Assembly (NCBI GenBank): GCA_902782665.1
Contig: CACZOA010000049.1
Span: 1-64,000 of the forward strand
Reading direction: 5' to 3'
Source: an uncultured Bacteroidales bacterium
Lineage (GTDB): Bacteria; Bacteroidota; Bacteroidia; Bacteroidales; Paludibacteraceae
DNA length: 64,000 bases
The position numbers were made by a program, and so were the translations under genes. Within the stretch, counting starts at the first letter, position 1; every line of letters starts with the position of its first letter. This document shows, piece by piece, positions 49,313-64,000 of this stretch. A model generated the notes under the pieces. That model did not search any database. It had not been told where the DNA came from and saw only the letters and a list, made by a program, of their open reading frames with translations.

Positions 49313-50536
49313 ATGACAGACGATCAGGAAAAGTTATTCAACAAAAACTATATATTCTGCTGTCTTTCAAACTTCCTGCTGAATTTTAGTTTTTTCATCG
49401 TCATCCCGATTCTTGCGCTATACCTGAAAGAGACATACGAGTCTAACGGTGCGGAAGTGGGATTCGTGCTTTCCGTATATGTGATCGCAGCAATGATAAT
49501 ACGTCCCTTCTCGGCTTATATCATCGACACGTTTCCAAGAAAGCCGTTTTTCGTAGGTGCGCTCGCTATTTTCGCCACAGTTTTTCTCAGCTATAATTTC
49601 GCATCCACAATCGGAATGTTCGTCATTCTGCGAGCTCTTCATGGACTGTCATTCGGAGCAACGACGATAGGTTCCAACACCATCGTCATCGATGTGGTGC
49701 CATCCAAATACCGTGGCGAAGGATTGGGATATTTCGGTTTGTCAAACAATTTTGCCATGGCACTTGGTCCGATCGCAGGCGTGTCGTTGCATGATTCTCT
49801 TCCCGAGGAGACGCGATATATCTCCATCTTCAGCGTGGCATTCGCGTTAAGCATTCTGGCTGTTGTGGCAGCATCACAAATCCACACAAAGTATCGTCCG
49901 CCAGTGGAGCGGCCAGCAATCTCTCTTGACAGATTCTTCCTGATCAAAGGCATACCTGCCGGAATAAACCTGCTGTTGCTCTCCATCACATACGCAGTGA
50001 CGATGAACTACATCTATATCTACGCACAGGAGACGGAGATCGGGATCACCCCAGGAGCATTCTACAGCTGTATGGCTATCGGAATCGCTACAAGCAGAAT
50101 ATTCTCTGGCAAAATGGTAGACAGGGGCTATCTCAATCGCGTCATCATAATCGGAGCATCCATCGCGACATTTGCCTTTTTCCTATTGGCGACGCTACCG
50201 TTCCTCAACATCAGCGGCAAATCAATCATATTCGTCGCAAGTGCGTTGATCCAAGGATGCGGATACGGCACAATCTTTCCTGCCTACAACACTTTGTTTG
50301 TAGCACTCGGACGAAACGACCAGCGTGGAAGCGCTACGTCTACATACCTCACATCATGGGAGATTGGAGCCGGAATCGGAATCTTCTGTGGAGGAGCGAT
50401 CACCGAATATATGCAGATTTCTTCATTCTACATCATCGGTACAATGCTCAACCTGACTGCTGTAGCGATGTTTGCAGCATACACTTCAAAACATTTTAAC
50501 CGTTGGAATATAGGATACATGCCATGCAAAAGATAG
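49313..50536 (+). CDS. Major facilitator superfamily transporter
   Basis: 407 residues with about twelve hydrophobic segments and the MFS hallmarks: a first helix LLNFSFFIVIPILALYL, a loop 2-3 motif in modified form (IIRPFSAYIIDTFPRKPFFVG, with PFSAYIIDTFPRK in place of the usual GxLaDrxGrR), RALHGLSFGATTIGSN in helix 4, and a second half starting KGIPAGINLLLLS. The closest general class is the DHA1/AraJ-like efflux group. The substrate is not deducible. Its end overlaps the start of miaA by 13 bases. Confidence 0.88.
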   Translation: MTDDQEKLFNKNYIFCCLSNFLLNFSFFIVIPILALYLKETYESNGAEVGFVLSVYVIAAMIIRPFSAYIIDTFPRKPFFVGALAIFATVFLSYNFASTIGMFVILRALHGLSFGATTIGSNTIVIDVVPSKYRGEGLGYFGLSNNFAMALGPIAGVSLHDSLPEETRYISIFSVAFALSILAVVAASQIHTKYRPPVERPAISLDRFFLIKGIPAGINLLLLSITYAVTMNYIYIYAQETEIGITPGAFYSCMAIGIATSRIFSGKMVDRGYLNRVIIIGASIATFAFFLLATLPFLNISGKSIIFVASALIQGCGYGTIFPAYNTLFVALGRNDQRGSATSTYLTSWEIGAGIGIFCGGAITEYMQISSFYIIGTMLNLTAVAMFAAYTSKHFNRWNIGYMPCKR

Positions 50537-51453
50537 AACTAATCACAATTCTTGGACCTACAGCGTCCGGCAAAACAACATTCGCCGCACACTTGGCTAA
50601 GGCTCTCGACACAGAAATCATCAGTGCCGACTCCCGTCAGATATACCGCAACATGGATATCGGAACCGGCAAAGATTTGTCGGATTACACTATCGACGGC
50701 ACCGTCATCCCATATCATCTGATCGACATCCAGGAGGCTGGCTACAAATATAATCTCCACGAATATCAGAGAGATTTCAATGCAGCGTTCAACGACATCA
50801 AAAGTCGTGGGAAACTGCCTATTCTCTGCGGCGGCACAGGTCTTTATATCGAGTCTGTGTTGAAAGGATATTGTCTGCTTCCAGTGCCTGAAAACAAAGA
50901 GTTGAGAGAGAGTTTGAGCGATAAAAGTCTTGAAGAGCTGACAGAAATCCTTAAACAATACAAGACACTCCACAACACTACCGATGTCGACACTGCCAAA
51001 AGAGCCATCCGTGCGATCGAAATACAGCAATACTATGCAGAGCATCCGGACGAAGTGAAGGAGAAAACCACCACCCCACTCCAAAGCCTCATCATTGGCG
51101 TGGATATCGATCGTGAGGCAAGACGTGAAAAGATTTCACGCAGGTTGAAAGCCCGTCTTGACGAAGGCATGATCGCTGAAGTAAAGGCTTTGCTCGACAG
51201 AGGTATAGCTCCTGAAGATCTGATCTACTATGGTCTGGAATATAAGTTTGTGACTAATTATCTGATCGGAAATATCAGTTATGACGAGATGGTCAGCACA
51301 CTGGAAATCGCAATCCATCAATTCGCGAAACGACAGATGACATGGTTCAGAGGCATGGAACGTAGAGGAATACACATCGAGTGGATAGACTATGCGATGC
51401 CGACAGAAGAGAAGATTCAATTCGTGAAGGACAAACTAAAGGAGATTGGTTAA
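50524..51453 (+). CDS. miaA: tRNA dimethylallyltransferase MiaA
   Basis: Adds a dimethylallyl group to N6 of A37 in tRNAs that read UNN codons. The product (309 residues from the preferred start) has the P-loop GPTASGKT (11-18), EIISADSRQIYRNMDIGTGK, LPILCGGTGLYIES, a substrate-pocket RAIRAIEI segment and the C-terminal QFAKRQMTWFRGM motif. The longer frame from 50503 adds seven residues ahead of MQKIELITILG; I prefer 50524 because the P-loop is then at the usual distance. The MFS gene stop lies inside its first codons, a 13-base overlap. Confidence 0.95.
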   Translation: MQKIELITILGPTASGKTTFAAHLAKALDTEIISADSRQIYRNMDIGTGKDLSDYTIDGTVIPYHLIDIQEAGYKYNLHEYQRDFNAAFNDIKSRGKLPILCGGTGLYIESVLKGYCLLPVPENKELRESLSDKSLEELTEILKQYKTLHNTTDVDTAKRAIRAIEIQQYYAEHPDEVKEKTTTPLQSLIIGVDIDREARREKISRRLKARLDEGMIAEVKALLDRGIAPEDLIYYGLEYKFVTNYLIGNISYDEMVSTLEIAIHQFAKRQMTWFRGMERRGIHIEWIDYAMPTEEKIQFVKDKLKEIG

Positions 51454-51455
51454 AA

Positions 51456-52349
51456 ATGGCTGGGATCATAAAAAGCATAGATGAATTCAACGACTATTTC
51501 AATCAGGGTACAAAACACCAGCATATAGCTGTCGGTGACCTTTCACGTGCTGATCTGACGCTGTTTGACCCCATCAACTTCAACATGTACTGTGTGGTGC
51601 TGATGGACAACAATTTTGGTGAACTGATAAGGTCTGGCGAAGTCATCAACTACAAGCCTGGCACACTATTCACTTTGCGTCCAGGTCAGGTGGTGCAGGT
51701 GAATCTGAATTACAATGTGAAGCCACGCGGATGGATACTTGCGTTCAGGGAAGAGTTGACTGAGAAGACGGGATTAGGTCGAGACTTCTATATGTTTGAC
51801 TATTTCAACCACGACGTGAATGACGCACTTGAACTAAGCAAGTCGGAGCGAGGCATCATTCTCAACTGTTTTTCTAATATCTACTCCGAACTGATCACCA
51901 AGCCAGACTACCTGACTGGCCACCTTCTACGTCTGGGCATCGGACAACTACTATCCTACTACAAACGATTCTTCGAACGTCAGTTTGCAGACAGAGTGCG
52001 TTGCGACAACAAATTCCAGAAAAAACTGGAGACGATGATCAACAACTATCTGTCCAGCGGTTCTGCACAGCAATTAGGCCAACTCAAAGTGTCGTGGTGT
52101 GCCCAACAATTCAATCTTTCTCCAAACTATTTCGGAGACTTGGTCAAGAAAGAGCTTAACATGTCTGCCCAAGAATACATACACAAAAAAGTGGTGGAGA
52201 CAGCCAAGTATCTGCTCGACACTACGGAAATGCCTGTGAACGAGATCGCACAGGAACTTGGATTCAATTATCCGAACCATTTCAACCGCATGTTCAGAAA
52301 AATGACAGGCTCTACCCCTCTGCAATATAGGAAGAATATATCTAAATAA
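51456..52349 (+). CDS. AraC-family transcriptional regulator
   Basis: 297 residues from the ATG at 51456, two bases after the miaA stop; a longer frame from 51381 would run through the end of miaA and is less likely. The N-terminus is a cupin-like sensor domain (PINFNMYCVVLMDNNFGELI, SGEVINYKPGTLFTLRPGQV). The C-terminus holds the two helix-turn-helix motifs of the family: KVSWCAQQFNLSPNYFGDLV, then KKELNMSAQEYI, and the signature NEIAQELGFNYPNHFNRMFR followed by KMTGSTPLQYR. The ligand and targets are unknown. It sits at the end of the DUF486-MFS-miaA unit and may act on the transporter. Confidence 0.9.
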   Translation: MAGIIKSIDEFNDYFNQGTKHQHIAVGDLSRADLTLFDPINFNMYCVVLMDNNFGELIRSGEVINYKPGTLFTLRPGQVVQVNLNYNVKPRGWILAFREELTEKTGLGRDFYMFDYFNHDVNDALELSKSERGIILNCFSNIYSELITKPDYLTGHLLRLGIGQLLSYYKRFFERQFADRVRCDNKFQKKLETMINNYLSSGSAQQLGQLKVSWCAQQFNLSPNYFGDLVKKELNMSAQEYIHKKVVETAKYLLDTTEMPVNEIAQELGFNYPNHFNRMFRKMTGSTPLQYRKNISK

Positions 52350-52472
52350 AATTCGTAATTCACTATGCATAATTCGTAATTGTTGCGAATTACATCTTCG
52401 GCATTGGATTTTACCGTAGGGGGCGATCCCTTGTGGTCGCCCTGACCTAAATAATGAGATTGTCCTGACCTA
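52350..52472. repeat. Intergenic dispersed-repeat fragments next to the DUF4132 gene
   Basis: The spacer between the convergent AraC and DUF4132 genes holds repeat-like pieces and no gene. ATTCGTAATT occurs twice and a related GCGAATTAC once at 52352-52393. CGTAGGGGGCGATCCC and GGTCGCCC form an inverted repeat (arms 52421-52426 and 52437-52442). The phrase CCTGACCTA is repeated at 52441-52449 and 52464-52472. The first palindrome resembles the one at 62831-62858 on the other side of the operon. Confidence 0.6.
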
Positions 52473-52482
52473 GATATAAAAG

Positions 52483-52509
52483 AAGAGACGCCGCAATGCG
52501 ACGTCTCTT
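52483..52509. terminator. Terminator between the convergent AraC and DUF4132 genes
   Basis: AAGAGACG (52483-52490) / CGTCTCTT (52502-52509) with an inner CGC/GCG pair, followed on the minus strand by CTTTTAT and on the plus strand by an AT-rich tail. The placement suggests that it serves the DUF4132 operon and possibly also the AraC unit. Confidence 0.78.
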
Positions 52510-52521
52510 AATCATTTTATT

Positions 52522-55500
52522 TTACTCATTCTCACGGGGAGCAAGAGAATACAGAAGAAGCATTGTTTCACTGAAATAACGTGGATCCACATCCGATATT
52601 TTCATCCAACCTTCATCATCATGGTTACAGTACCCAGGAATATGACCGGCTTTGAAAAATACTACTTCTTTAAGAGTCACCTCTTCACCCTCATAATCAT
52701 AGATAACCGTTGACGTTCCAGAATGAACCAGAAGCGAACCCCATCCTTCATAAGTTGTTGTGCCATCAGCGTTAAGAGAACGGCTCTTCACATCTTCTCG
52801 ATAAAAGTAGTAGAAAGCACCTGCATCCTCAGCGTCGCCCTTATACCAACCATTCTTGGTCATTTGGTTTATCATTGCCACGCTGTTGACTGTGGTATCC
52901 TCAAAACGTGTGAGACAGTTGCATGGCAACTCCTTGTCATCAGGCCTAAAGACCATTCTTCCAAGCTGATCGAAAGGCTGAGTAAGTTCATAATCAGAAA
53001 GTTGCTCCTTCCAAACGGAGATTTGCTCTTCAGTGAGTTCAAGAGGATGGACAAGACCAATTTGAGCATCATTCGGCAATGTGAACTCGTCACCGTCAGC
53101 AGTTGTAAAACTTCCGTCATCCATATAACGGAAAGTATCTTTGAGTGCTTCGTTTTCGTAAATACCCCAAATCAATCCGACTGCGAAACAGTGCATAACG
53201 GCATTGCCGACAAACAGTTTCTCCCAATTCTCACTTGTCCATTTGCGATCACACATAAGTACATATTCAAGTCTCGCACGCTGTGCTGCCACAACATTTT
53301 TAAGCTGTTTCTTCACTTCCTTGAATTCGTTGTATGCTGCTTCAGCGGTATCCTTGTCGTCGGTAGTTCCTGGCTTAGGAAGAGTCTTTATCTGCTTGTT
53401 TCCAGAGAACACCTCCATTTCAAGTGAAGGCTTGAGATACACATTGAACTGTCTCTTTCCATAATCGAACACACGGCATAGATTTCTGTCAAAACCTAAA
53501 TCAGGCACAATCCTATCCGCAAGTTCTTCTGTGGTAATTCCTAAGGTATCGGCAGCCGCAGCCAAAGCCTCCGCTGCAGCGGCACGCACCCTCTTGTGCT
53601 TGAATTTTCTCGACATATTATCAACGTTCATCAACGCCTCATTACTGCCGTTGAGAGACAAAGCCCAAACGGTTTCAGCCGCGATAGCTCCACGCATTGA
53701 CTCAGACCACTCCTTGATGTTACGCATCAGTTCATCGATCATCTTTAAACCACCATGGATAGCGCAGAAATAGAGTGCAGGCTTAAACTTTGTCTGAGCT
53801 CCATTGTCGTACCAACGTGCGAAGATATCTGCGGAAAACTCTTCCAGATCCTTCTGATTCAGATTTGCAGCGATACTGTCGGCCAGAGAACTTCTTGCAG
53901 GAACCGTCATTCCTGCATAACACATAACAAGAGCGATTGGTTCTTCAATTGCTTCTGAACCATCAAGTTTATGAACGGTCCTAAGCGTATCATTAAACAG
54001 GAAGCTGAGTTTGCTGTTCTTTGCACTTTTAGCAAGTTTTGAAACCTGCTTGTCAATATCAAGTTGAGAGACTCCAGTATTGGAAGGAGCCGAATCAAGA
54101 AGCACACCGATATACGTTCTGATCTTATCAGATTTCTCCACTTCTAATGCAGCATTCAGCTCATTGGAATACGCATTCGCACCCTGTCTGCCGATAATCA
54201 CCAATGCCAATTCTCTTACTGACGCTTTCTTATCCTTAAGCAAAGCTGCGATATCATCATGCCAATCTTGCTTAATCAGTACCGACGCGAGTTCATTTCG
54301 GACTCCTTTGCAGCTATCATAGACGCAAGAAAGGAGTTTCGCCTTGAATTTTTCTGCGTCGTTACCCATAGCATTTACCGCTAATATCCTTGCGCCATCG
54401 GAAAGCTGAGAAAAATCCATCGCAATAAGTTCGTCTGGATGGGAAGAAAGAATTTCCACAGTTTTTAATAAATCAGCCATACTGCAATATCTTTCATCAA
54501 AGACAAGACCGATAATATTTACAGCCTCCCCAAAGGATAATCCACAGCCTTGAAGGATATCAAAAGTCTCTTTTATATGATTATCAAAACAAAAGCCCGT
54601 TAAATCTTCAATGTTGAACTGTCTACGCAACGGAGTTTCATAAGAACAGAGAGACAATATGGTAATAGCACGAGCAAGATATTCATCTATTATGCCGAAA
54701 GTATTATAATAGTTGCATTTGACATCAACTTTCAAATTCCATCCACCCTTAGTCAAAGGACGAGTCTCTTCAAGGGTCGATTCTCCAAGTATGTATTTTG
54801 CGACTTCCCTACAATAAGGGTTTCCACTTATTGATTTGGAGAAACTTTTTCTCACGGCTTCCGCAAGCTCCTTACGGCTTCTATCTCTAAAATCATCTGC
54901 AATAGAGGCTGAATTAGGATCAACACGCTGGAGTATCTCGCACATATATTTAACTACGGATTTATCTTCAGGCAATGAGATAGCCTTCTTGAATTGTTCA
55001 GGATAAGTTTTGGCAAGTCGTTCTATCCACTCATCCCTATCTGGCAAAGCCTCAATATTTAAGAAATAGTTCTTGCTTTCAGTCTGAAAGGCTACGGAAC
55101 TTATATATTCCGGAGTAACCAAACAGTCGTCAGCTTTGTTTGATTTGAAGAGTTTTGCAAATTGATCCAGAACATTCAAAGAGTTTTTATCTGCTTCATT
55201 TGCGACTCCATTACCTTCAATATATTTGAATAACTTTACAAATGGATTCGAAACATTTATTGCAAATTCTACAACATACTTAGTGACCCTACTATATCCT
55301 TCTTTGAAATATTCGCATGCCTTGCTTGAATATGGAGCAGCCTCACCCAATGCACAAGTCAAATAAGCCAATAGTCTCGAAAACGATTTTTTTTCATCGT
55401 CATTGGCAGCATTTTCGTACTCCTTCAAAACACTGTCATAATATTCTTTCCAAAGCTTTTCTGCAGCCACAACTGCCCATTTTCCATCCTCTGAAAGATT

Positions 55501-56076
55501 TTTACCTTCCTGCTCCAACAAATAACAAAGAAGATTAGCTTTGACAAAAATAAACCTATATAAATATCGACTGTCATAAAGATCATATACACCTCTAAGA
55601 ACAGATGTGTTAGTCGTCTTAGGCATATGACGGTAGGAAGCATCGTCAAAACACATCGCATAATATAAAACCTCTGGATCTATACCAAGATTATCCGAGA
55701 TTGGTTTTATAATACGGGATTTATACTTCTCAGAATTTTCTATCATACTACTGTGATCTACGAAACTATCAAAAAGTTCGTAGCATTCACAACCGAACAG
55801 CGTATAAATAGCCAGTATGAATCTTTCAGCGAGTTCAGTATTATCTTTCCTGATTATCTCCTTTTTAACGATCGTATTGAGATCATATTTATGTACATGA
55901 AAAGTATCCCTACACTTCTTTTCGATTTTGCCCAGCAAAGCGTTATTCCTCGGCTGAGTTATATCAAGATACTCGCATACGGTATTGAGCTCTTCCTCTG
56001 AAATCGCATCTTTCAATTGTTCTCTAAAGTCGTTTATAAAATTCTCAAACGCTGATGTTTTTTTTTCGTAAAGCAT
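52522..56076 (-). CDS. DUF4132 (YehI/MolR-like) HEAT-rich protein
   Basis: 1,184 residues, cytoplasmic in appearance. The first 800 residues are helical, with HEAT-like repeats (residues about 540-700, e.g. ARILAVNAMGNDAEKFKAKL, KASVRELALVIIGRQGANAY). The DUF4132 signature lies around residues 860-1060: DLGFDRNLCRVFDYGKRQF, a KTLPKPGTTDDKD segment, QLKNVVAAQRARLEYVLM, then LIWGIYENEAL and IGLVHPLELTEEQISVWKEQ. E. coli YehI and MolR carry the same domain; the function is unknown. It is the last gene of the five-gene operon, two bases after the SWIM gene, and is followed by a terminator. No N-terminal WGR domain was seen, unlike some relatives. It is probably a scaffold or effector subunit. Confidence 0.85.
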   Translation of the reverse strand: MLYEKKTSAFENFINDFREQLKDAISEEELNTVCEYLDITQPRNNALLGKIEKKCRDTFHVHKYDLNTIVKKEIIRKDNTELAERFILAIYTLFGCECYELFDSFVDHSSMIENSEKYKSRIIKPISDNLGIDPEVLYYAMCFDDASYRHMPKTTNTSVLRGVYDLYDSRYLYRFIFVKANLLCYLLEQEGKNLSEDGKWAVVAAEKLWKEYYDSVLKEYENAANDDEKKSFSRLLAYLTCALGEAAPYSSKACEYFKEGYSRVTKYVVEFAINVSNPFVKLFKYIEGNGVANEADKNSLNVLDQFAKLFKSNKADDCLVTPEYISSVAFQTESKNYFLNIEALPDRDEWIERLAKTYPEQFKKAISLPEDKSVVKYMCEILQRVDPNSASIADDFRDRSRKELAEAVRKSFSKSISGNPYCREVAKYILGESTLEETRPLTKGGWNLKVDVKCNYYNTFGIIDEYLARAITILSLCSYETPLRRQFNIEDLTGFCFDNHIKETFDILQGCGLSFGEAVNIIGLVFDERYCSMADLLKTVEILSSHPDELIAMDFSQLSDGARILAVNAMGNDAEKFKAKLLSCVYDSCKGVRNELASVLIKQDWHDDIAALLKDKKASVRELALVIIGRQGANAYSNELNAALEVEKSDKIRTYIGVLLDSAPSNTGVSQLDIDKQVSKLAKSAKNSKLSFLFNDTLRTVHKLDGSEAIEEPIALVMCYAGMTVPARSSLADSIAANLNQKDLEEFSADIFARWYDNGAQTKFKPALYFCAIHGGLKMIDELMRNIKEWSESMRGAIAAETVWALSLNGSNEALMNVDNMSRKFKHKRVRAAAAEALAAAADTLGITTEELADRIVPDLGFDRNLCRVFDYGKRQFNVYLKPSLEMEVFSGNKQIKTLPKPGTTDDKDTAEAAYNEFKEVKKQLKNVVAAQRARLEYVLMCDRKWTSENWEKLFVGNAVMHCFAVGLIWGIYENEALKDTFRYMDDGSFTTADGDEFTLPNDAQIGLVHPLELTEEQISVWKEQLSDYELTQPFDQLGRMVFRPDDKELPCNCLTRFEDTTVNSVAMINQMTKNGWYKGDAEDAGAFYYFYREDVKSRSLNADGTTTYEGWGSLLVHSGTSTVIYDYEGEEVTLKEVVFFKAGHIPGYCNHDDEGWMKISDVDPRYFSETMLLLYSLAPRENE

Positions 56077-56078
56077 AA

Positions 56079-57854
56079 TTATTCCTCCTCTTCTATATTG
56101 TTCATATTATGTAGAGCTGAGATTCTTCCCAGTTTATTTTCCGCTAAATTAATATATTTCATGAGTTTGGATGCACAAGAAAGGATTTTCTCGGTTTCTT
56201 GGTCAAGGCTGTTCCTATAATTGTCAGCCGACGAGAAAAAGTTTTCTGCCAACGTTGCAAGTCCCGACATTCCACAACGTTTGATCTTCTCAATAAGCGG
56301 TGTGTGATTTTCCACCGTCGAACTTAATCCGCTTCTGACACACCTCACAACGCTATTTTCCACTTCAGACAAAAGATTCAAAAGCACATGAGCATATTGA
56401 GGATCGACGACGGTGTCTTCAGACGACGGTGAGAAACTATGGAAGTCCATGTCTTCTATGAAATCGTAAAACTCTATCGGATAGAGCATGACACAACCAT
56501 TCTTAATTCTTGCAGAGACAAGCATTGTCCACACATTCACAGTATCTTTAATTCTGCCACATATCTCTTCGATATTTTCGACAAACTCCTTATTCTCGGC
56601 AAAATACTTCACCTCTGCAGTCACATTTCTGCCATCACGGTCGGAGATTTCCATAGAAAAAACCTGCGTATGTTTGTCGAAAATGTAGTTTTCAAGTTTG
56701 TGAATGCGAATAAGGAAAAGTTTATCCTTATGGGTTTCGGCAGAATATACAAGTTCACGGAAATCGGTTATCACAAGTCTTCTCAACTGCGGACAATTGA
56801 GTTCAGCCTTGCTTGTAAAGACGACCTCAGTCTCAGAAGAACCAGAAATCTTTTCTCCACTAAGTTTGGCTTTTTTCAACAAAAGTTTTGAATACATCAT
56901 GTTTGTAAGAGATGTATTCAAGCTCCAGATAACAGTTTGAGTCTGTCTTTTATGTGGATCTTGGGAATAAAATGTAGGACGAAGGTCAGAATACATCAGA
57001 AAGCGTGGCTGTTCACTCTCGTCAAGATTCAAAAAATAATACACACCACCCTGATATTCTCCTCTCACGACTTCTTTATGTCCGATCGGCAACAATTCAA
57101 GATTCCCAGGATACAATTCATAAGTATCACGGAAGACACCAAGTTTTTCATAAGACACATCTTCACTTTCCAGTTCAACGAGCATCGAGACACATGAACA
57201 TATCGACCTTGTAAAGGCATTAGCATCGAAAGAAGCCCTACGGTTTATACAGTCTGATAGTCTGCCAGACAACGCACGAAGTTTTCGTTCTGCATCAGCC
57301 ATTTTGGCGGTGTGGGCACTGACAGCCGCAAGTTCTAGAGCATCAGCCACAGAACTGTCCGCACGAACAAGTCCCCTCGCAAACAATGTGCCGAGCAGCG
57401 AAAGACTATGTTTGGCACAATTCTTAATCTCAGATATTTCATCAGGTGTCAAAGCATCTTCGACTGCTTTTTCAGAAGACTTTTTCTTAGGAGATTCTTT
57501 AACTGTCCCCAAATCCCGAGATCCTTTGCTTGGCGCAGAAACCTGAGGAGCCTCAACTTGAGGCGTCGCCAAACCTTCTGGAACATCCTTTTTCAGAAGC
57601 AATATTGCTCCAAGGATATGTCTGCACACCGTCCTTGATGGACAAGAACATGTACTTTTTTCAAACGGGAACCTTATAACACACTGTTCACCACCTACTG
57701 CAATCTGTATCGTGTCATCCACTTCAGTATATTCAGCAGAAAGACCTTCTATATCCTTCAAGGCACGTTTGTAGAGGCCCTTGTTTGCAAGAGCAGTCAG
57801 AGTATCTTCGTTTGCCGCAGAGAGTTGGGCCGCAAGTGTTTCATTCTGTATCAT
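56079..57854 (-). CDS. SWIM zinc-finger protein (YehQ-like)
   Basis: 591 residues. The SWIM zinc-binding motif CxCx5CxH is complete at C69, C71, C77 and H79 (STCSCPSRTVCRH). A low-complexity charged linker follows (about 105-140, KESPKKKSSEK), then a large alpha/beta region with FLMYSDLRPTFYSQ and TVIWSLNTSLTNMMYSKLL. SWIM domains bind zinc and usually mediate nucleic-acid or protein contacts. The E. coli YehQ protein has the same type of domain next to AAA+ and vWA genes. The start ATG lies 13 bases after the vWA gene, and the stop is two bases before the DUF4132 gene. Confidence 0.85.
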   Translation of the reverse strand: MIQNETLAAQLSAANEDTLTALANKGLYKRALKDIEGLSAEYTEVDDTIQIAVGGEQCVIRFPFEKSTCSCPSRTVCRHILGAILLLKKDVPEGLATPQVEAPQVSAPSKGSRDLGTVKESPKKKSSEKAVEDALTPDEISEIKNCAKHSLSLLGTLFARGLVRADSSVADALELAAVSAHTAKMADAERKLRALSGRLSDCINRRASFDANAFTRSICSCVSMLVELESEDVSYEKLGVFRDTYELYPGNLELLPIGHKEVVRGEYQGGVYYFLNLDESEQPRFLMYSDLRPTFYSQDPHKRQTQTVIWSLNTSLTNMMYSKLLLKKAKLSGEKISGSSETEVVFTSKAELNCPQLRRLVITDFRELVYSAETHKDKLFLIRIHKLENYIFDKHTQVFSMEISDRDGRNVTAEVKYFAENKEFVENIEEICGRIKDTVNVWTMLVSARIKNGCVMLYPIEFYDFIEDMDFHSFSPSSEDTVVDPQYAHVLLNLLSEVENSVVRCVRSGLSSTVENHTPLIEKIKRCGMSGLATLAENFFSSADNYRNSLDQETEKILSCASKLMKYINLAENKLGRISALHNMNNIEEEE

Positions 57855-57867
57855 ATCATCACCTCCG

Positions 57868-59010
57868 TCAACTAAATATTCTACCTATATAATCACCCAA
57901 CTGATCAGGTGTCAAAGCACCTACAAACGCTCCCATATCAGCAAGACGTTGACCCATATTCCTGTCGTATGCAGGATTGGCACATTCATCAAGAGCTGCA
58001 AGAAAACTGAGTTTCGCACCACTTGTCATGATATTTTGAGCAGTGTTGAGAAGAATTTTCGGAATTCCTCCTTCACAAAGATCAGTCACACACAACACAC
58101 ACGTATTGGAAGGAGACTGTATCAGAGACTCGCAATAAGAAAGGGCTTTTCCAATATCCGTACCGCCTCCAAGCTGAACACTCATCATAACCTCCACAGG
58201 ATCCTCCACCATACCAGACAGGTCTACAACCTGTGTGTCAAATATAATAAGTTTGACCTCTGCAAATGGCAACTTCGATATTATCTGAGCCATGACAGCA
58301 CTGTATATCACAGAATCAAGCATAGATCCACTCTCGTCGACAGCAATTATAACCGTCTTCTTGTTGTATTTTTTCACTCTGCTTGAGAAATACACATCCT
58401 TCAGCACAAGTGTTTCGTTTTCTATATCATAATTTTTCAGGTTACGTCTTATAGTCTTACGGATATCAATATTACGTGCCGAATGTATGGGGCTTCTGGC
58501 ATTGCGGTCAAGTCGGCCAGTCAAAGCCTGCCTTGTACTTTGAGAAAGTTTCTTGCTCAGTTCCTCAGCCACAGTACGAGCGATCTTCTTTGCTGTATCG
58601 AGCACTTCTCCCTTCATCAAATGTTTAAGCTGAAGTATTGTTTTCAGCAGCGACATATCTGGTTTCATCTGCTCTAGCACTTTCTTGTCAGTCAGCAACT
58701 CGGTCATTTTGAACTCATCTAGAGCTTGACGTTCCAGCACCTCAGCCGTCTGCTTGGGAAATAGTTCTCTTACTTTTGTTATCCAATTTACCGCAGTCAG
58801 CTGTGACGGTCCTAGCCCACCACCTCGGCCGGACGTTTCATCCACACGGACATCATCACCCTGCGCACGACTATAAAGATAATCAAGCAACTGCTCCATG
58901 TCCTCAAACGACTGGACTTCTCTTTCACTTCCACTGAAAGGAAGACTGTTGTCTGACATACTGCCGAGCACTAGTCTCCAACGGTTTAGAGCAAGTTCTT
59001 TATCAAGCAT
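57868..59010 (-). CDS. von Willebrand factor A protein, CoxE/YehP-like
   Basis: 380 residues. The N-terminal half is helical (LALNRWRLVLGSM, then LFPKQTAEVLERQALDEFK). The C-terminal half is a vWA domain with an intact metal-ion-dependent adhesion site: DESGS at 225-229, T284 in GGGTD (281-285) and D310 in CVTD. No signal peptide or membrane helix is present, so it acts in the cytoplasm, unlike Bat-type vWA proteins. Such vWA proteins are partner or activator proteins of MoxR-family ATPases. The start overlaps the DUF5682 gene stop by 8 bases, indicating coupling. Its E. coli counterpart is YehP. Confidence 0.9.
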   Translation of the reverse strand: MLDKELALNRWRLVLGSMSDNSLPFSGSEREVQSFEDMEQLLDYLYSRAQGDDVRVDETSGRGGGLGPSQLTAVNWITKVRELFPKQTAEVLERQALDEFKMTELLTDKKVLEQMKPDMSLLKTILQLKHLMKGEVLDTAKKIARTVAEELSKKLSQSTRQALTGRLDRNARSPIHSARNIDIRKTIRRNLKNYDIENETLVLKDVYFSSRVKKYNKKTVIIAVDESGSMLDSVIYSAVMAQIISKLPFAEVKLIIFDTQVVDLSGMVEDPVEVMMSVQLGGGTDIGKALSYCESLIQSPSNTCVLCVTDLCEGGIPKILLNTAQNIMTSGAKLSFLAALDECANPAYDRNMGQRLADMGAFVGALTPDQLGDYIGRIFS

Positions 59011-61360
59011 ATTCGAATCCTCCTTTCATAAGTTCTTTGATTATCTCATTGTCGAACTCACGTCCGCAATTCCACAGCGACTCATCCGTTATATCATCAT
59101 ACAACAGAGAAACAGAATCTGTGTTATACAGGCCAGCGACAGTCTCAGCCGTTTCATTTATCTCCTGAGGCGTGAAATAACTGAATGCAAGTCTTAGAGA
59201 CGGGAGGATCTCCATAAAATCGTTGGTGTCCATCGAAGTCAGGAGTTCATCCGTCATAACAAGAAAATCATTCTCTGCAAAAACGATGTCTCTCGCAGTA
59301 GAGAAAAGGCCCTTTAGATAATCAGCACCCTGCTTCTTTACAGCGATTGTTCCGTTAAGGTATCCGCACATTGCCGCCTCAGCATCTTTCTGTCGAGCCG
59401 GATCTCCAATACAGAGGAGCCCCATTGCCGCACCGTATACAGCAGGATTCCTGTTGTTTGCTTTAATTAGTTGATTGAGTGCAGCGATAAGCGAATCCCT
59501 TCGTTCTGAAAGAATACATTCCGTCAACGAAAAGAACTGTTTCATCAACGAGCAAAGATCATCTGCCTTTTCATCCGGCACAGATGCCATTGCTGGCAGA
59601 AGCATAACAATCTTGTCAAAGCATTTTGACATCAGTGGCAGAATCGTTTCGTCTTCATATTCATACAGACGCTTAAGTTCCAACAACGTCCGAAAATAAG
59701 AAAGAGCCTTTCCTACCGAAAAGAAATCTCCATCCGAGACGACGAGTCTCTGAAGAGTATCGCTTTCGTTATCTATGCTTATGCCCATAAGGAAACAATC
59801 TACCGCAAGATGGGCCGCATTTTCACAACGTTGTTCATTTCGGAACATATTCACAGCGACATTTGTACAAGCATCCTCTATTGTGAACCCATCAGTAGTA
59901 CGATCGATAAGTGTGGAGTCTACAGCTGGAGATCTGCGGTATTTCCACTCCTCACGCACTCTGCTGCAGTCACATTCGTTATGAAGGTCAGGACCTTTTA
60001 TTCTCTCGCAGAAACCGGTGTCAAGGAAACAGAGTCTGTGAAAGAATCTGCTGAGTTGCAGACCTTTTTCAGAAGAAAACAGCGCACATTCCACATGCTG
60101 GGCTGTAATGACATTCGTTTTAAGCCTGAACAAACGACATTGTTCTTCAAAATCCGCAACCAATGGAGGAGTATGGTTTTTATCACCTATACGCCCTATT
60201 TTATCACCTGTCGCAAGTTTGTTCAGTATATCAAGAGGCATCGCAGAAGAGATTGTCTTCTCGCCTTTAATCATGGCTCCAGTCACGCCATCGATAAGTT
60301 CAGTCATTCCGCACTCACGTACACCTCTAAGAGAGGCAAGACCACTCATCAACATTTTTGCGGCGGTGACATCAGCAATCGACACAGGAATATCTTTTTT
60401 TGACGCCTCCTTGCTGGTTTTAACCAACAGATTTAGTGTTTCGTCATCATATACCCCTTTGAAATCTTTTCCGTTCCTCAGGCTCTTGTATATGCAATCG
60501 TAAAAATAAGGCCATTTCATTCCAGAGGCATATCCGTGCAAAGCATCCGCCGCTTCATAAGAATATGCGGCAGGAAAAGATCCTGTGCAATCATCAGGGA
60601 TTTTGTGTAAACCCACCGTCGGGATATCTCCTTCCAGAAGTTTTATCAGACCTGGAGTATGAAAACCACCAGTCACGACAAGCACACGTTTGTATGTGTC
60701 CATAGACTTCCGAATATTTGCCGCCATATACTGTTCTCTGACAATAGTACCGTCGTCAGAAAGCTCTTCCTCTGTCACATCCCTACGTATGAGCGAGCAA
60801 TAAGTGTACATGTTGTGCACAAATTTTTCGGGAGTCAGTTCCAGTCCAGCAATCTCAAAATACTTTTCCCAGAACTCATCAAAATCCTTTACATTAGTTT
60901 TTTCGCACAAGTATTTATAATAATCACCTATGGTCAGTCTACCGTCGTCAGCATAATTCTGCTTTTCATATCTTCGCAAGCCCTTTCCACCCGCTGTGTT
61001 GATCAGGATCTCGCAATATGGCAAATCGATGAACCGAGACGGAATTCCGAGTCTTTTGGCCTCACACATCGCATTATATTCTGGAGACGAATACAAAAAA
61101 GGATAGTAGCAACGATAGTTTCCACCATCGCTGTCGATCAGTTTTTTCTTATCCTTATAAAAATAATATATTGCCGACGGTAATACAGTATTATCATCAG
61201 TCAATACAGGAATAAGATCGCATGCGTTCTCAGGCCCTTCAATCAAAATGATTTCCGGACGGTAAAGATCTATCGTGCGAGTAAGATGATATGAGCAGAC
61301 AGGGCTGTGATGTCTAACGGGGAAAAACAGCACAGGAGCTGAAAGGTCAAAATCGATCAT
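59003..61360 (-). CDS. DUF5682 protein (YehM-like), possible EreA/ChaN/TraB-type fold
   Basis: 785 residues from an ATG at 61360 whose ATGA overlaps the stop of the AAA+ gene; a frame extended to 61396 is less likely. The N-terminal 240 residues show spaced motifs RHHSP (16-20), IEGPE (40-44), RFIDLP (109-114), REQYMAANI (208-216) and GGFHTPG (231-237). This order resembles the catalytic motifs of the EreA/ChaN/TraB-like superfamily (histidines and glutamates around a possible metal or nucleophile site); that is my inference from the motif pattern, not proven. The remaining 540 residues are helical and repeat-like with an acidic character. The E. coli homologue YehM is uncharacterised. Position 2 of the five-gene operon suggests it is the enzymatic or effector subunit. 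Confidence 0.85.
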   Translation of the reverse strand: MIDFDLSAPVLFFPVRHHSPVCSYHLTRTIDLYRPEIILIEGPENACDLIPVLTDDNTVLPSAIYYFYKDKKKLIDSDGGNYRCYYPFLYSSPEYNAMCEAKRLGIPSRFIDLPYCEILINTAGGKGLRRYEKQNYADDGRLTIGDYYKYLCEKTNVKDFDEFWEKYFEIAGLELTPEKFVHNMYTYCSLIRRDVTEEELSDDGTIVREQYMAANIRKSMDTYKRVLVVTGGFHTPGLIKLLEGDIPTVGLHKIPDDCTGSFPAAYSYEAADALHGYASGMKWPYFYDCIYKSLRNGKDFKGVYDDETLNLLVKTSKEASKKDIPVSIADVTAAKMLMSGLASLRGVRECGMTELIDGVTGAMIKGEKTISSAMPLDILNKLATGDKIGRIGDKNHTPPLVADFEEQCRLFRLKTNVITAQHVECALFSSEKGLQLSRFFHRLCFLDTGFCERIKGPDLHNECDCSRVREEWKYRRSPAVDSTLIDRTTDGFTIEDACTNVAVNMFRNEQRCENAAHLAVDCFLMGISIDNESDTLQRLVVSDGDFFSVGKALSYFRTLLELKRLYEYEDETILPLMSKCFDKIVMLLPAMASVPDEKADDLCSLMKQFFSLTECILSERRDSLIAALNQLIKANNRNPAVYGAAMGLLCIGDPARQKDAEAAMCGYLNGTIAVKKQGADYLKGLFSTARDIVFAENDFLVMTDELLTSMDTNDFMEILPSLRLAFSYFTPQEINETAETVAGLYNTDSVSLLYDDITDESLWNCGREFDNEIIKELMKGGFEYA

Positions 61361-62457
61361 CTCAGCTGGTTTGCTGTCTTGATGTATTCGTTCCATAAAT
61401 CACCTGCCTTGCTTTTTTCTTTTGACACAGTTTTGAAATAACTTCTGAGTTTTTCCAAATCGTCCTTGTTTTCCTTGCACACTGCGCCAAGAAGGCCCTC
61501 AGTAAGAACAGCAGGTTCTATACGACCACTGCCATAATACCAGGCATGACACAGAGCCTGATAATACACGGACACAGCCTCAGCGGTACTCATCACAGCG
61601 TTGGGACGCTCAATCACCGTACCCTCTGAAGTCATACCCTCACGCAACTCATGATATGTCACAGCAAGAAGTTCAGCCACATCCGTATCCACAGGGCACT
61701 CGATATTTGCCGACTTGGCAAGTTCTGAAGCCTCTCGGATTATAATTTCCTTTTCAAGTCTCACATCCCTTACAGGCTCTACTGTCTCGAAGTTAAAACG
61801 TCTTTTCAAAGCTCCAGACATCTCATTGACACCCTTGTCACGCGTATTCGCAGTACCAATTATATTGAAGCCCGGTTTGGCAAGGACAAGTCCATCATCT
61901 CCCATTTCCGGTATGTTCATTATCTGGTCGGACATGACAGAGATCAAGCTGTCCTGTATCTCTGCCGGAGTACGGGTAATCTCCTCAAATCTTGTGAAAA
62001 TGCCCTTTTCCATGCCTATAAGCAAAGGAGACGGTACCATAGCCTCACGACATGGGCCCTTTGACAGAAGCAGTGCATAGTTCCAACTGTACTTTATCAT
62101 ATCCTCAGTAGTGCCGGCAGTACCCTGGACAGTATTGGTTGATACGCCACAACATGCGGCAGACAAAAGTTCGGAGAGCATTGTCTTAGCGGTGCCCGGT
62201 TCACCCACCAGCATAAGTCCACGGTTTCCAGCAAGAGTTATGATCGCTCTCTCGACAAGAGCGTCGTTACCATAGAACTTACGTTTGATTTTCACTTTAC
62301 CGTCAGGAGTATCGACGTCTCCACCAAGAATGAATGTTCTCACCGCAGCAGGAGAGAGTCTCCAGTTTGCAGGTCTTCTAGCTTTGTCATTATTTTCAAG
62401 GGCACTGAGTTCTTCCGAATAGCGCACTTCTACAGGAGGCTTGATAAATTGTTCCAT
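61357..62457 (-). CDS. MoxR-type AAA+ ATPase (YehL-like)
   Basis: 366 residues. Walker A is GEPGTAKT (85-92). The Walker B position reads IFTRFEEI (153-160), with Glu-Glu where most MoxR ATPases have Asp-Glu. Sensor-1 region IIGTANTRDKGVN (199-211) and Arg-finger region KRRF (218-221) are present. MoxR proteins usually act with vWA partners as chaperone-like remodelling machines; two genes later a vWA protein is encoded. First gene of the operon; 460 bp of non-coding DNA lies upstream. The E. coli counterpart is YehL. The substrate being remodelled is unknown. Confidence 0.9.
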   Translation of the reverse strand: MEQFIKPPVEVRYSEELSALENNDKARRPANWRLSPAAVRTFILGGDVDTPDGKVKIKRKFYGNDALVERAIITLAGNRGLMLVGEPGTAKTMLSELLSAACCGVSTNTVQGTAGTTEDMIKYSWNYALLLSKGPCREAMVPSPLLIGMEKGIFTRFEEITRTPAEIQDSLISVMSDQIMNIPEMGDDGLVLAKPGFNIIGTANTRDKGVNEMSGALKRRFNFETVEPVRDVRLEKEIIIREASELAKSANIECPVDTDVAELLAVTYHELREGMTSEGTVIERPNAVMSTAEAVSVYYQALCHAWYYGSGRIEPAVLTEGLLGAVCKENKDDLEKLRSYFKTVSKEKSKAGDLWNEYIKTANQLR

Positions 62458-62917
62458 ATTCGTATCAGTTGACGGAATTATATAAAATTATACGCTTAAT
62501 CAAAAAGCTGGTTACAGTCTTATTCAACACAGAGACACAGGGTTCTCAGAGATTTTTATAAGCTGTTCGATTTTCTAATTATCCACAATCAAAAAGCATG
62601 TGGATTTCATCGAGCTCACGTTAGATTAAGAAAAACTTCTAAAATCAGTAGATCACAGATCAAACTAACAAAGGTCTGCAATTAAAACATACGCAACCTT
62701 TTCACAAAGATTCATAAAATCTTGGAAATCTACAAGAAAAAGACAAAAGATTTAGATAAGAAGAGAAATGTTCTTGAGCAGGCATGTTTTTTCTGGCATT
62801 TTAACACGATAAAAAGGAGAATTCCATGATCGTAGGGGCAGGTTTCAAACCTGCCCGCAATAGGAATAATGAGAAAACAGAAACATGGAAAAACAAATAA
62901 GACTCATCGAACTGACC
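62458..62917. other. Intergenic region upstream of the MoxR-vWA operon
   Basis: 460 bp with no credible gene. It should contain the promoter of the MoxR operon, but I found no convincing TAnnTTTG box on the minus strand. It holds a dispersed-repeat-like phrase (CACAGAGACACAGGGTTCTC at 62527-62546) and a short imperfect repeat, TCATCGAGCTCACGTTA (62607-62623) and TCATCGAACTGACCTTA (62904-62920; 14 of 17 identical). A perfect GGGCAGGTTT palindrome lies at 62836-62856. Confidence 0.6.
62831..62858. repeat. GTAGGGGC...GCCCGC palindromic intergenic repeat
   Basis: Inverted repeat GGGCAGGTTT (62836-62845) / AAACCTGCCC (62847-62856) inside GTAGGGGC...GCCCGC. There is no T-tract, so it is not a terminator. 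The same leader CGTAGGGG with a GCCC arm occurs at 52416-52442. Such elements are common dispersed repeats in many bacteria. Confidence 0.6.
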
Positions 62918-63259
62918 TTACTTTAGATTCAAAAGGTCCTCATCAAAATCATTCAAAATCATTTTTACATCATACTCTGGTCCTAATTCTTCACACAACT
63001 TCACATACGCATCACGGGAAACTTTCAAAAAATCCTCTATTTGATTTTTATTCCACAATATATCACCGTTTGGTTCCTCTCGATTCAAGCATGTATCATA
63101 CAAATCAATCAGATCATTCAAAGTCTCCTTTAATTCGTCGGATATAGGCAAATCATCTGCCTCAATGGGATAACCGTTAAACATTCTCCGTGCAGCTTCA
63201 TTATCAGTCCATACACAAATGCCACTACCCCAATCAAACATAAATTTCAAATTGTACAT
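62918..63259 (-). CDS. Immunity-like small protein of unknown family
   Basis: 113 residues, acidic, no signal peptide. The pattern FDWGSGICVWTDNEAARRMF, DDLPISDELKETLNDLIDLY and the tail LCEELGPEYDV resembles small proteins often found beside SUKH and other immunity genes in polymorphic-toxin loci (from memory, not checked). It lies 31 bases downstream of the SUKH gene, on the same strand. A role as a second immunity or orphan immunity protein is an inference. Confidence 0.7.
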   Translation of the reverse strand: MYNLKFMFDWGSGICVWTDNEAARRMFNGYPIEADDLPISDELKETLNDLIDLYDTCLNREEPNGDILWNKNQIEDFLKVSRDAYVKLCEELGPEYDVKMILNDFDEDLLNLK

Positions 63260-63290
63260 TGTAGATCAGCTCCTCTAATAATAATTTTTA

Positions 63291-63764
63291 TCAATCATTA
63301 GATCTTGCCTTCCAATACTCAACTCTTTCTTTTCGGAAATCACCTCCATTAAGCAGATATTCGCTTAATGAATCCGCAGCAAACAACAAGTCATGTCCAT
63401 GCAAAAACTGATAGATTTTTCCGTCTGACTTCTGGACCATCACAGCGTTGTCTATTCCAACCGATTCTATCACATAACAATCCATCGGGAAATCTGAAAA
63501 TAGTTCACGCATATTCTGGGTTCGAATAACCGTAGATACATGCCTAGAATCCACAACACCACATAATTCCATTCCATCAACTTCTATATATCCAAAATCA
63601 TGTGTATATTCCCAAAAGTCTTTTGAAAAATTGACTCCTAAAGATTCCTCTGCTTTAGCAATTTTTGATGATTCAACTCCACCTTTTGAAAAGAAATCTT
63701 CCGATTCGTCTGCTAGTGAATTAATCACTTCAATTATATTCTGTTCCATTTTTATAAAACTCAT
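63291..63764 (-). CDS. SUKH-superfamily (SMI1/KNR4) immunity-type protein
   Basis: 157 residues from the ATG at 63764 (an ATG at 63749 would give 152). The family pattern is present: IAKAEESLGVNFSKDFWEYTHDFGYIEVDG, i.e. the E-xxLG-xxLPxxY-xxxxxxGG-type N-terminus; a CYVIESVGIDNAVMVQ strand; and the GKIYQFLHGHDLLFAADSLS turn. SUKH proteins are known immunity proteins against nuclease and other toxins delivered by contact-dependent systems. The 3' end of a possible toxin gene lies upstream at 63903-64000, 138 bases away and on the same strand, which fits the usual toxin-then-immunity order. Confidence 0.85.
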   Translation of the reverse strand: MSFIKMEQNIIEVINSLADESEDFFSKGGVESSKIAKAEESLGVNFSKDFWEYTHDFGYIEVDGMELCGVVDSRHVSTVIRTQNMRELFSDFPMDCYVIESVGIDNAVMVQKSDGKIYQFLHGHDLLFAADSLSEYLLNGGDFRKERVEYWKARSND

Positions 63765-63902
63765 TCAACAATTAGCACAACGATAATAGAATAAACAAAT
63801 AAATTAATCTCATTACATAATTGATACAAACTTATAAACTGTTTATCAAAAATTCAAGTCATTCAAACAAACGTTTCTGATCACCTGAATATAAAAATTA
63901 TA

Positions 63903-64000
63903 TTAGAGCGTTTCACCATCTTTTTTATAACGTGATTTCCAATGGTCGCTTCGCTCCGTATCAAATTCCTTTCTGTCTATTTCCGATTTTTTCTTTTTGT
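63903..64000 (-). CDS. 3' end of a larger gene, possibly a polymorphic toxin
   Basis: A 31-codon tail ending at a TAA (plus 63903-63905) is open to the window edge in one frame: KKKKSEIDRKEFDTERSDHW, then KSRYKKDGETL. The basic, Trp-containing ending is of the kind seen at the C-terminus of HNH-type toxin domains, and a SUKH immunity gene follows. The other two minus-strand frames here meet stops early. The catalytic part lies outside the window, so the identity is only suggestive. Confidence 0.5.
   Translation of the reverse strand, partial: KKKKSEIDRKEFDTERSDHWKSRYKKDGETL

What the first reader, a model, noticed from the sequence alone, without database searches (positions are those of the whole stretch)
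52522..62457. Five-gene MoxR - DUF5682 - vWA - SWIM - DUF4132 operon: an uncharacterised ATPase-driven system
Seen directly: five minus-strand genes with overlaps of 4 and 8 bases and gaps of 13 and 2 bases, coding for an AAA+ MoxR ATPase, a large DUF5682 protein, a MIDAS-intact cytoplasmic vWA protein, a SWIM zinc-binding protein and a DUF4132 HEAT-rich protein. Established: E. coli yehL, yehM, yehP, yehQ and yehI code for the same families and have no assigned function; MoxR ATPases usually work with vWA partners. Inference: the five proteins form one machine in which MoxR/vWA remodels or switches the DUF5682/DUF4132 parts. A role in defence or protein quality control is possible, because of the neighbouring immunity locus and the flanking repeats. 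This is the strongest candidate for an undescribed system in the window.
Basis: partly seen in the sequence, partly recalled or inferred. Interest (0 to 1): 0.78.

Follow-up and report, generated by a model that had tools for sequence, protein, structure and literature searches.

The report
ATP-driven switch for a TIKI-fold enzyme
A rumen Bacteroidales genome carries a five-gene cluster, most likely acquired from a Ruminococcus relative, in which an ATPase gene of the MoxR family and its vWA partner lie next to a gene for a large protein whose front part is predicted to fold like the TIKI/TraB/erythromycin-esterase enzymes, so the pair would act as a motor that likely switches an unknown hydrolase on or off.

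Summary
In detail: five minus-strand genes (MoxR, DUF5682, vWA, SWIM, DUF4132) form one tight unit followed by a terminator-like hairpin. The MoxR/DUF5682 overlap is probably 40 bases, not 4. It is the E. coli yehL-M-P-Q/yehI set (MoxR 47%, vWA 40%, DUF5682 26% identical), so the families are known but unexplained. New here: (1) profile, motif and AlphaFold evidence agree that the N-terminal 260 residues of DUF5682 are a TIKI/TraB/Ere/ChaN-type domain with invariant His30, Glu53, Arg220 and His246, so the likely client of the MoxR/vWA pair is a predicted hydrolase; (2) all five genes occur in this order at 24 of 42 related loci; (3) the window copy nests within Ruminococcus, implying transfer; (4) in one Ruminococcus-type clade, leucine-rich-repeat genes are interleaved with the core genes, 21 in one genome. 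A molybdate role (from MolR) is unlikely in these lineages (0 of 15 searched genomes match either molybdenum family). The neighbouring immunity genes end a type VI secretion island not seen beside all copies, and no PADLOC model fits; but phage-family models match three of the five proteins. Substrate, activity and complex formation are untested.

The parts
61357..62457 (-). MoxR-type AAA+ ATPase, YehL subfamily (366 aa)
   Evidence: AAA_5 107.3 bits; 47% identity over 361 aligned positions to E. coli YehL, against 20% over 45 positions to RavA
62185..62205 (-). Walker A motif, residues 85-91
   Evidence: GxPGTAK invariant in the 17 sequences aligned
59003..61396 (-). DUF5682 protein (797 aa): predicted TIKI-fold N-terminal domain plus helical C-terminal part
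   Evidence: PF18934 307.1 bits; AlphaFold pLDDT 85.7, pTM 0.74
60617..61396 (-). Predicted TIKI/TraB/Ere/ChaN-like domain, residues 1-260; invariant His29, His30, Glu53, Asp124, Arg220, Glu221, Gly243-x-x-His246
   Evidence: invariant residues; profile comparison; model and structural matches
57868..59010 (-). CoxE-like vWA protein (380 aa), YehP counterpart
   Evidence: PF05762 140.3 bits; 40% identity to YehP
58324..58338 (-). MIDAS D-x-S-x-S, residues 225-229
   Evidence: invariant in the 17 sequences aligned
56079..57854 (-). SWIM zinc-finger protein (591 aa), YehQ counterpart
   Evidence: PF04434 20.1 bits; weak match to YehQ, 30% over 80 positions
57618..57650 (-). SWIM motif C-x-C-x5-C-x-H, residues 69-79
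   Evidence: invariant in the 14 sequences aligned
52522..56076 (-). DUF4132 protein (1184 aa), YehI counterpart
   Evidence: PF13569 161.5 bits; 33% identity over 350 positions to YehI
52846..53397 (-). DUF4132 domain, residues 894-1077
52483..52509 (-). Terminator-like hairpin after the last gene
62458..62917 (-). 460-base gap upstream of MoxR; probable promoter region (inferred)
   Evidence: distance; the promoter scan found no more sites in the region than shuffles (25 against 25.7)

Best explanation
The cluster encodes a MoxR ATPase and a vWA protein that would act as an ATP-driven switch on the DUF5682 protein, whose N-terminal 260 residues are predicted to be a TIKI/TraB-superfamily hydrolase, with the SWIM and DUF4132 proteins likely serving as recruiting or scaffold parts. 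Shown here: the five genes, their conserved order, intact ATPase, MIDAS and SWIM motifs, and a DUF5682 domain that matches the TIKI superfamily by predicted fold, by profile (moderately) and by invariant residues (His30, Glu53, Arg220, His246). Inferred from characterised MoxR systems: MoxR forms a hexameric ring and the vWA protein uses its metal site to hold a client. Inferred from the anatomy: the client is DUF5682 itself, whose helical C-terminal part would give the docking surface, and ATP hydrolysis opens, closes or rebuilds the hydrolase. Inferred: the SWIM protein and the DUF4132 protein (a DUF5691-like protein in other Bacteroidota) bring the substrate to it. The substrate (peptide, ester or other) is not known.
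Confidence: 0.45

Rival explanations
1. A cofactor or metal insertion machine: MoxR/vWA works like NorQ/NorD, CbbQ/CbbO or the magnesium chelatase and loads a metal or haem into the DUF5682 domain or into another protein; DUF5682 is the carrier, as ChaN is for haem.
For: Known MoxR/vWA pairs mature metal enzymes (PMC3893208 and PMC11432383, passages); haem-binding ChaN is among the structural matches; the SWIM protein is a predicted zinc binder; MoxR matches a PHROGs family labelled porphyrin biosynthesis (phrog_249, 47 bits).
Against: No metal enzyme or cofactor gene was noticed as a constant part of the unit in the loci printed. The nearest named case, molybdenum, fails in these hosts.
Confidence: 0.2
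2. A conflict system in the manner of the MoxR-vWA ternary systems: a threshold switch in which variable proteins (LRR proteins in Ruminococcus) sense an intruder and DUF5682 is the effector.
For: Same core logic as the ternary systems (PMC7159879, passages); LRR-plus-tail genes between or beside the core genes in 10 of 42 loci, 21 in one operon; patchy spread (8 of 395 Bacteroidota genomes) and transfer between phyla. PHROGs, a library of phage and archaeal-virus proteins, has families matching DUF4132 (E 1.7e-65), vWA (2.6e-87) and DUF5682 (7.1e-30), so relatives sit in some viral or prophage records.
Against: No VMAP, iSTAND, FtsH or beta-propeller partner in the Pfam scan; bpMoxR scores 19.6 bits against a cut-off of 27. 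No PADLOC model. Only 1 of 50,697 phage records matched DUF5682 (24% identity, an unannotated faecal record) and none of 31 pattern matches in viral contigs was confirmed. In E. coli K-12 it is a chromosomal cluster. Several LRR genes look, by eye, like positional orthologues between species, not hypervariable.
Confidence: 0.2
3. A DNA-damage response complex, since a DUF4132 gene is induced on loss of DdrO in Deinococcus and MolR has been described as a LexA regulon member.
For: PMC8533742 (one passage). E. coli yehF beside the DUF4132 genes is a PF05406 protein (that PF05406 is the WGR domain is recalled).
Against: The window's DUF4132 protein has no WGR match; no damage-type operator was looked for; the Deinococcus genes named there were not compared.
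Confidence: 0.08
4. Molybdate metabolism, as the name MolR for a DUF4132 relative suggests.
For: Literature only: PMC8533742 passage and the title of the original molR paper seen in a reference list, not read. E. coli, which has the yeh cluster, does have both molybdenum families (control).
Against: 0 of 15 searched operon-bearing genomes match Mob_synth_C or Molybdopterin, while 11 of 14 control genomes match each. The 15 are at most 14 distinct, and some are incomplete drafts (the window's is 87.7% complete).
Confidence: 0.03

Closest known systems
E. coli yehI-yehK-yehL-yehM-yehP-yehQ cluster
   Same: Same five families; MoxR 47%, vWA 40%, DUF4132 33% (over 350 positions), DUF5682 26% identity; order MoxR-DUF5682-vWA-SWIM kept
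   Different: In E. coli the DUF4132 gene stands first with yehK between, and a second DUF4132 gene annotated as a pseudogene (yehH) lies upstream; here DUF4132 is last. The SWIM proteins are hardly alike outside the motif
MoxR-vWA ternary conflict systems (VMAP, iSTAND, FtsH, beta-propeller types)
   Same: A MoxR/vWA core plus a third component proposed to be restructured (PMC7159879, passages)
   Different: Third component is DUF5682, a predicted TIKI-fold domain; none of the four published third components appeared in the Pfam scan
Jumbo-phage MoxR/vWA pair with a metallopeptidase fused to the vWA protein
   Same: A MoxR/vWA pair tied to a hydrolase (PMC7824862, passages)
   Different: Peptidase fused to vWA and proposed for virion assembly; here the predicted hydrolase is a separate protein of another fold. 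Sequences were not compared
RavA-ViaA, NorQ-NorD, CoxD-CoxE, CbbQ-CbbO chaperone pairs
   Same: MoxR ATPase with a vWA partner that matures a dedicated complex
   Different: Different MoxR subfamily (RavA 20% over 45 positions); no metalloenzyme client noticed in the unit
TIKI superfamily (Tiki, TraB, Ere, ChaN, HopBA1, RRSP)
   Same: Predicted fold and invariant His, Glu, Arg, His
   Different: Long helical C-terminal part; a conserved second His (His29) before His30; tied to a MoxR/vWA pair; no hydrolase activity known

Membership tests
YehL subfamily of MoxR AAA+ ATPases | Closest to E. coli YehL rather than to other MoxR subfamilies | tested here: met
   47% over 361 positions to YehL; RavA 20% over 45 positions, E 0.029. 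Other subfamilies were not compared
YehL subfamily of MoxR AAA+ ATPases | Gene neighbour with a vWA domain | tested here: met
   vWA gene in the unit, MIDAS invariant in the 17 sequences aligned
YehL subfamily of MoxR AAA+ ATPases | Hexameric ATPase activity | not testable with these tools
   needs protein; only conserved ATPase residues were seen
TIKI/TraB superfamily (DUF5682 N-terminal domain) | Common alpha/beta core fold | tested here: met
TIKI/TraB superfamily (DUF5682 N-terminal domain) | His and Glu pair, Arg, and C-terminal G-x-x-H | tested here: met
   His30, Glu53, Arg220, Gly243-x-x-His246 invariant in 79 of 79 rows; profile alignment to TraB and Ere. Equivalence rests on alignment, not on superposed active sites
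TIKI/TraB superfamily (DUF5682 N-terminal domain) | Second Glu of the 2His/2Glu motif of RRSP | tested here: inconclusive
   no clear counterpart; Arg28 and Val27 lie near its expected place
TIKI/TraB superfamily (DUF5682 N-terminal domain) | Hydrolase activity | not testable with these tools
   needs an enzyme assay
MoxR-vWA ternary conflict systems | VMAP, iSTAND, FtsH or beta-propeller third component | tested here: not met
   Pfam scan of the five proteins to E 1 shows none; bpMoxR 19.6 bits against cut-off 27
Known anti-phage defence systems (PADLOC) | Match to a PADLOC-DB model | tested here: not met
   five window proteins to E 1: only IetA, E 0.044, for MoxR; six proteins (one of the window, five related) to E 0.01: none
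Molybdate/MolR function | Host makes molybdenum cofactor or molybdoenzymes | tested here: not met
   0 of 15 searched genomes for each of PF06463 and PF00384; controls 11 of 14 each, E. coli among them

The most novel reading that the evidence does not exclude
A modular ATP-gated hydrolase: a MoxR/vWA motor drives a TIKI-fold enzyme whose targets are chosen by plug-in adaptors. In one Ruminococcus-type clade the adaptors are leucine-rich-repeat proteins with a shared tail, up to 21 of them encoded between the core genes of a single operon, which would make it a bacterial machine with an inherited repertoire of exchangeable recognition proteins; the window's copy is a version carried to Bacteroidales without the repertoire.
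Probability: 0.27. Interest if true: 0.85.

Novelty: new variant of a known kind. Interest (0 to 1): 0.62.

Why it matters
E. coli K-12 carries this cluster, and the searches made here found no study of what it does. If DUF5682 is a TIKI-type hydrolase under MoxR/vWA control, the yeh cluster becomes directly testable with three point mutants and a purified protein. It would give the YehL branch of MoxR a client and widen the few known links between MoxR/vWA pairs and hydrolases. The Ruminococcus operons with interleaved LRR genes offer a natural experiment on what the machine recognises.

Tried and rejected
Defence by association: rejected as support, because the SUKH genes end a type VI secretion island that was not seen in the DNA held beside the operon at L003 and L131, and no PADLOC model fits. 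Against that: L003 keeps one SUKH gene directly upstream and L131 a UPF0167 gene, so small immunity-type genes recur near the operon in Bacteroidales, and PHROGs families match three of the five proteins. Left unexplained.

Molybdate function: rejected for these lineages, not for E. coli.

LRR link: the LRR-plus-tail proteins are also a dispersed family in the same genomes. Tail-profile matches in the 16 genomes searched (a choice from the genomes behind the 42 loci): 43, 32, 25, 21, 20, 17, 16, 12 in eight, 1 or 2 in four, none in four. In G555, 20 of the 43 stand in the printed rows for the operon contig (the print was cut). So interleaving does not by itself prove that they work with the machine. 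The tail profile matched none of the core proteins. The window genome has 66 LRR_5 matches, none on the window's contig in the list.

Repeats in 51000-64000: only short families. No Rfam match in 50000-64000.

Rows dropped: fragments from the tree (720 aa or less in the first set, 600 aa or less in the second); LRR tails of L037 and L039 from the tail profile; 4 of 17 TraB loci and 2 of 8 Ere loci from the profile test, 5 of 42 loci could not be compared. In the five-gene count L028 is included although its DUF4132 reads as two open frames, and L025 although its DUF4132 runs to the contig end.
Full report
OBSERVATION. The SWIM assignment is just over threshold (20.1 against 19.6 bits), but its C-x-C-x5-C-x-H motif is invariant in the 14 sequences aligned; Walker A and MIDAS residues are invariant in 17 each, window included. 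A terminator-like hairpin follows DUF4132 and a 460-base gap precedes MoxR. The start of DUF5682 is better placed at the first ATG, 40 bases inside MoxR: 27 of 37 comparable loci keep that ATG, and in the other 10, in which the DUF5682 start lies 17 to 5708 bases after MoxR, the codon is CTG.

WHAT IT IS. The set is the counterpart of E. coli yehL, yehM, yehP, yehQ and yehI: MoxR 47%, vWA 40%, DUF4132 33% over 350 positions, DUF5682 26%, SWIM 30% over 80 positions. YehL is a named MoxR subfamily (PMC3893208 and PMC11432383, passages). No paper in the held library contains 'DUF5682'. Searches with the gene names gave 1 paper, 3 and 7; none is, by its listing, a study of the cluster, and I read passages of four of them. 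The library holds only open-licence PubMed Central papers, so work elsewhere may exist.

CO-OCCURRENCE. Among 42 loci found with the window's DUF5682 in named genomes, 24 have all five genes in the order MoxR-DUF5682-vWA-SWIM-DUF4132 on one strand. Of the other 18, six lack genes although DNA continues: no DUF4132 match at L018, L033 and L034; no SWIM or DUF4132 at L027 and L036; no vWA, SWIM or DUF4132 at L009. Twelve run to, or close to, the end of the DNA held (at L032 the 1.4 kb left after SWIM shows no DUF4132); two of these (L019, L030) proved complete when more was fetched. MoxR stands upstream at 40 of 42; the two others (L020, L024) begin within 0.7 kb of DUF5682.

OTHER ARRANGEMENTS. 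At least 7990 DUF5682 proteins are in the protein collection (capped search), but in Bacteroidota the family is rare: 8 of 395 genomes including the window's. Of the seven others, four (G126, G351, G166, G023) carry a SWIM-like gene, a DUF5691-like gene, MoxR, DUF5682 and vWA; G162 has MoxR and a DUF5691-like gene, no vWA found; G178 has vWA on the other strand and no MoxR found; G037 has DUF5682 alone. DUF5691 was tested by Pfam only in G126 (305.7 bits) and G162 (25.5 bits, under the cut-off of 27), and a SWIM profile matched in G126 and G166; the rest is likeness of the gene heads. Two relatives in the window's own family (G504, G430) carry SWIM, a 293-299-aa gene without Pfam match, MoxR, DUF5682 and vWA. 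So MoxR, DUF5682 and vWA form the core, SWIM is usual, and the large extra protein varies.

TRANSFER. In a tree of 50 DUF5682 proteins the window and six other Bacteroidales rows sit inside Ruminococcus/Oscillospiraceae, next to L008 and L009 (99/99), while nine other Bacteroidota rows, two of them from the window's own family, lie on the far side. The tool warns of long branches among the distant rows and draws the root at the midpoint; the nesting itself does not hang on the distant rows' order. In 150 genomes of the family 10 have a match, in 2 of 33 genera. Transfer from a Ruminococcus-like donor is the simplest reading.

MECHANISM. MoxR/vWA pairs act on dedicated client complexes, and pairs tied to peptidases have been described in jumbo phages and in VMAP systems (PMC7824862 and PMC10907252, passages). 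Here the partner most closely tied to MoxR by gene order is DUF5682. The likely sequence is: the vWA protein holds DUF5682 or its substrate through the MIDAS metal, MoxR uses ATP to remodel the complex, and the TIKI-fold active site is opened or loaded. The SWIM and DUF4132 proteins would recruit or scaffold. All of these steps are inferred.

LRR GENES. In ten loci of one clade (98/89 support: L019-L025, L027, L029, L030) genes for LRR_5 proteins with a shared C-terminal tail stand on the same strand among the core genes: between core genes at nine, and beside the only core gene held at L024. In G555 there are 21 between MoxR and SWIM: 6, 10 and 5 in the three gaps, several with 4-base overlaps. 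The tail family also occurs elsewhere in these genomes, so a working link is a hypothesis. L010 has one weaker member 2.6 kb upstream. None was found on the window's contig.

WHAT IT IS NOT, OR LESS LIKELY. No PADLOC model fits. DUF5682 matched 1 of 50,697 phage records, none of 31 pattern matches in viral contigs was confirmed, and 31 of 72,556 plasmid records match, several of them of chromosome size. On the other side, PHROGs families match DUF4132, vWA and DUF5682 strongly, so relatives do occur in some viral or prophage records and the conflict reading stays open. The molybdate idea fails here: 0 of 15 searched genomes match MoaA's C-terminal family or molybdopterin oxidoreductases, while 11 of 14 controls match each; handles G413 and G558 appear to be one genome, L018's genome lacks DUF4132 at the locus, and some drafts are incomplete.

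VERDICT. A real, conserved, horizontally moved gene set of a known but unexplained kind. The new content is a concrete, testable enzyme prediction for DUF5682 and the finding of LRR-laden versions of the operon.

Noticed in passing
L128 2841-19999 and L129 56-13873 (G555:C50); also L019, L021, L025, L130: Operon with 21 LRR_5-plus-tail genes between MoxR, DUF5682, vWA and SWIM, several overlapping by 4 bases; the same tail family is scattered through the same genomes.
   Followed up: partly
L045 597-18525 (G000:C49, just beyond the window): Type VI secretion island on the same strand upstream of the operon: ClpB-like, TssD, TssC, VgrG-like, Tle1-like, DUF4280 (PAAR-like, recalled) and SUKH genes.
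   Followed up: partly
window 62918-63764: A 113-aa gene without Pfam match and a SUKH_5 gene between the type VI island and the operon; L003 keeps a SUKH gene next to MoxR, beside a DUF4096 transposase piece, although the island was not seen there.
   Followed up: partly
L131 7631-9158: At a different chromosomal site the Bacteroidales operon is preceded by a UPF0167 gene and a 321-aa gene without Pfam match.
   Followed up: partly
window 8102-34705, minus strand: A single open frame of 8867 aa; of three pieces tested, two show Ig_7 and the C-terminal one also PKD and a CHU_C type IX secretion signal, so probably a giant secreted repeat protein.
   Followed up: partly
L018 and L034, 12394-13299: An extra 301-aa gene between DUF5682 and vWA; the L018 copy has a sub-threshold Imm49 match (14.4 bits, cut-off 30.1).
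   Followed up: no
plasmid records NZ_CP103756 and CP137936: Two E. coli plasmid records (181 and 365 kb) carry DUF5682 genes 96.4% and 99.9% like yehM, with a vWA gene annotated beside them.
   Followed up: no
PHROGs phrog_20839, phrog_31592, phrog_30700: Phage-protein families match the DUF4132, vWA and DUF5682 proteins; which viruses carry them was not traced.
   Followed up: no
L046 5411-8270: In E. coli K-12 the second DUF4132 gene (yehH) is annotated as a pseudogene and reads as two open frames, both matching the DUF4132 profile.
   Followed up: no
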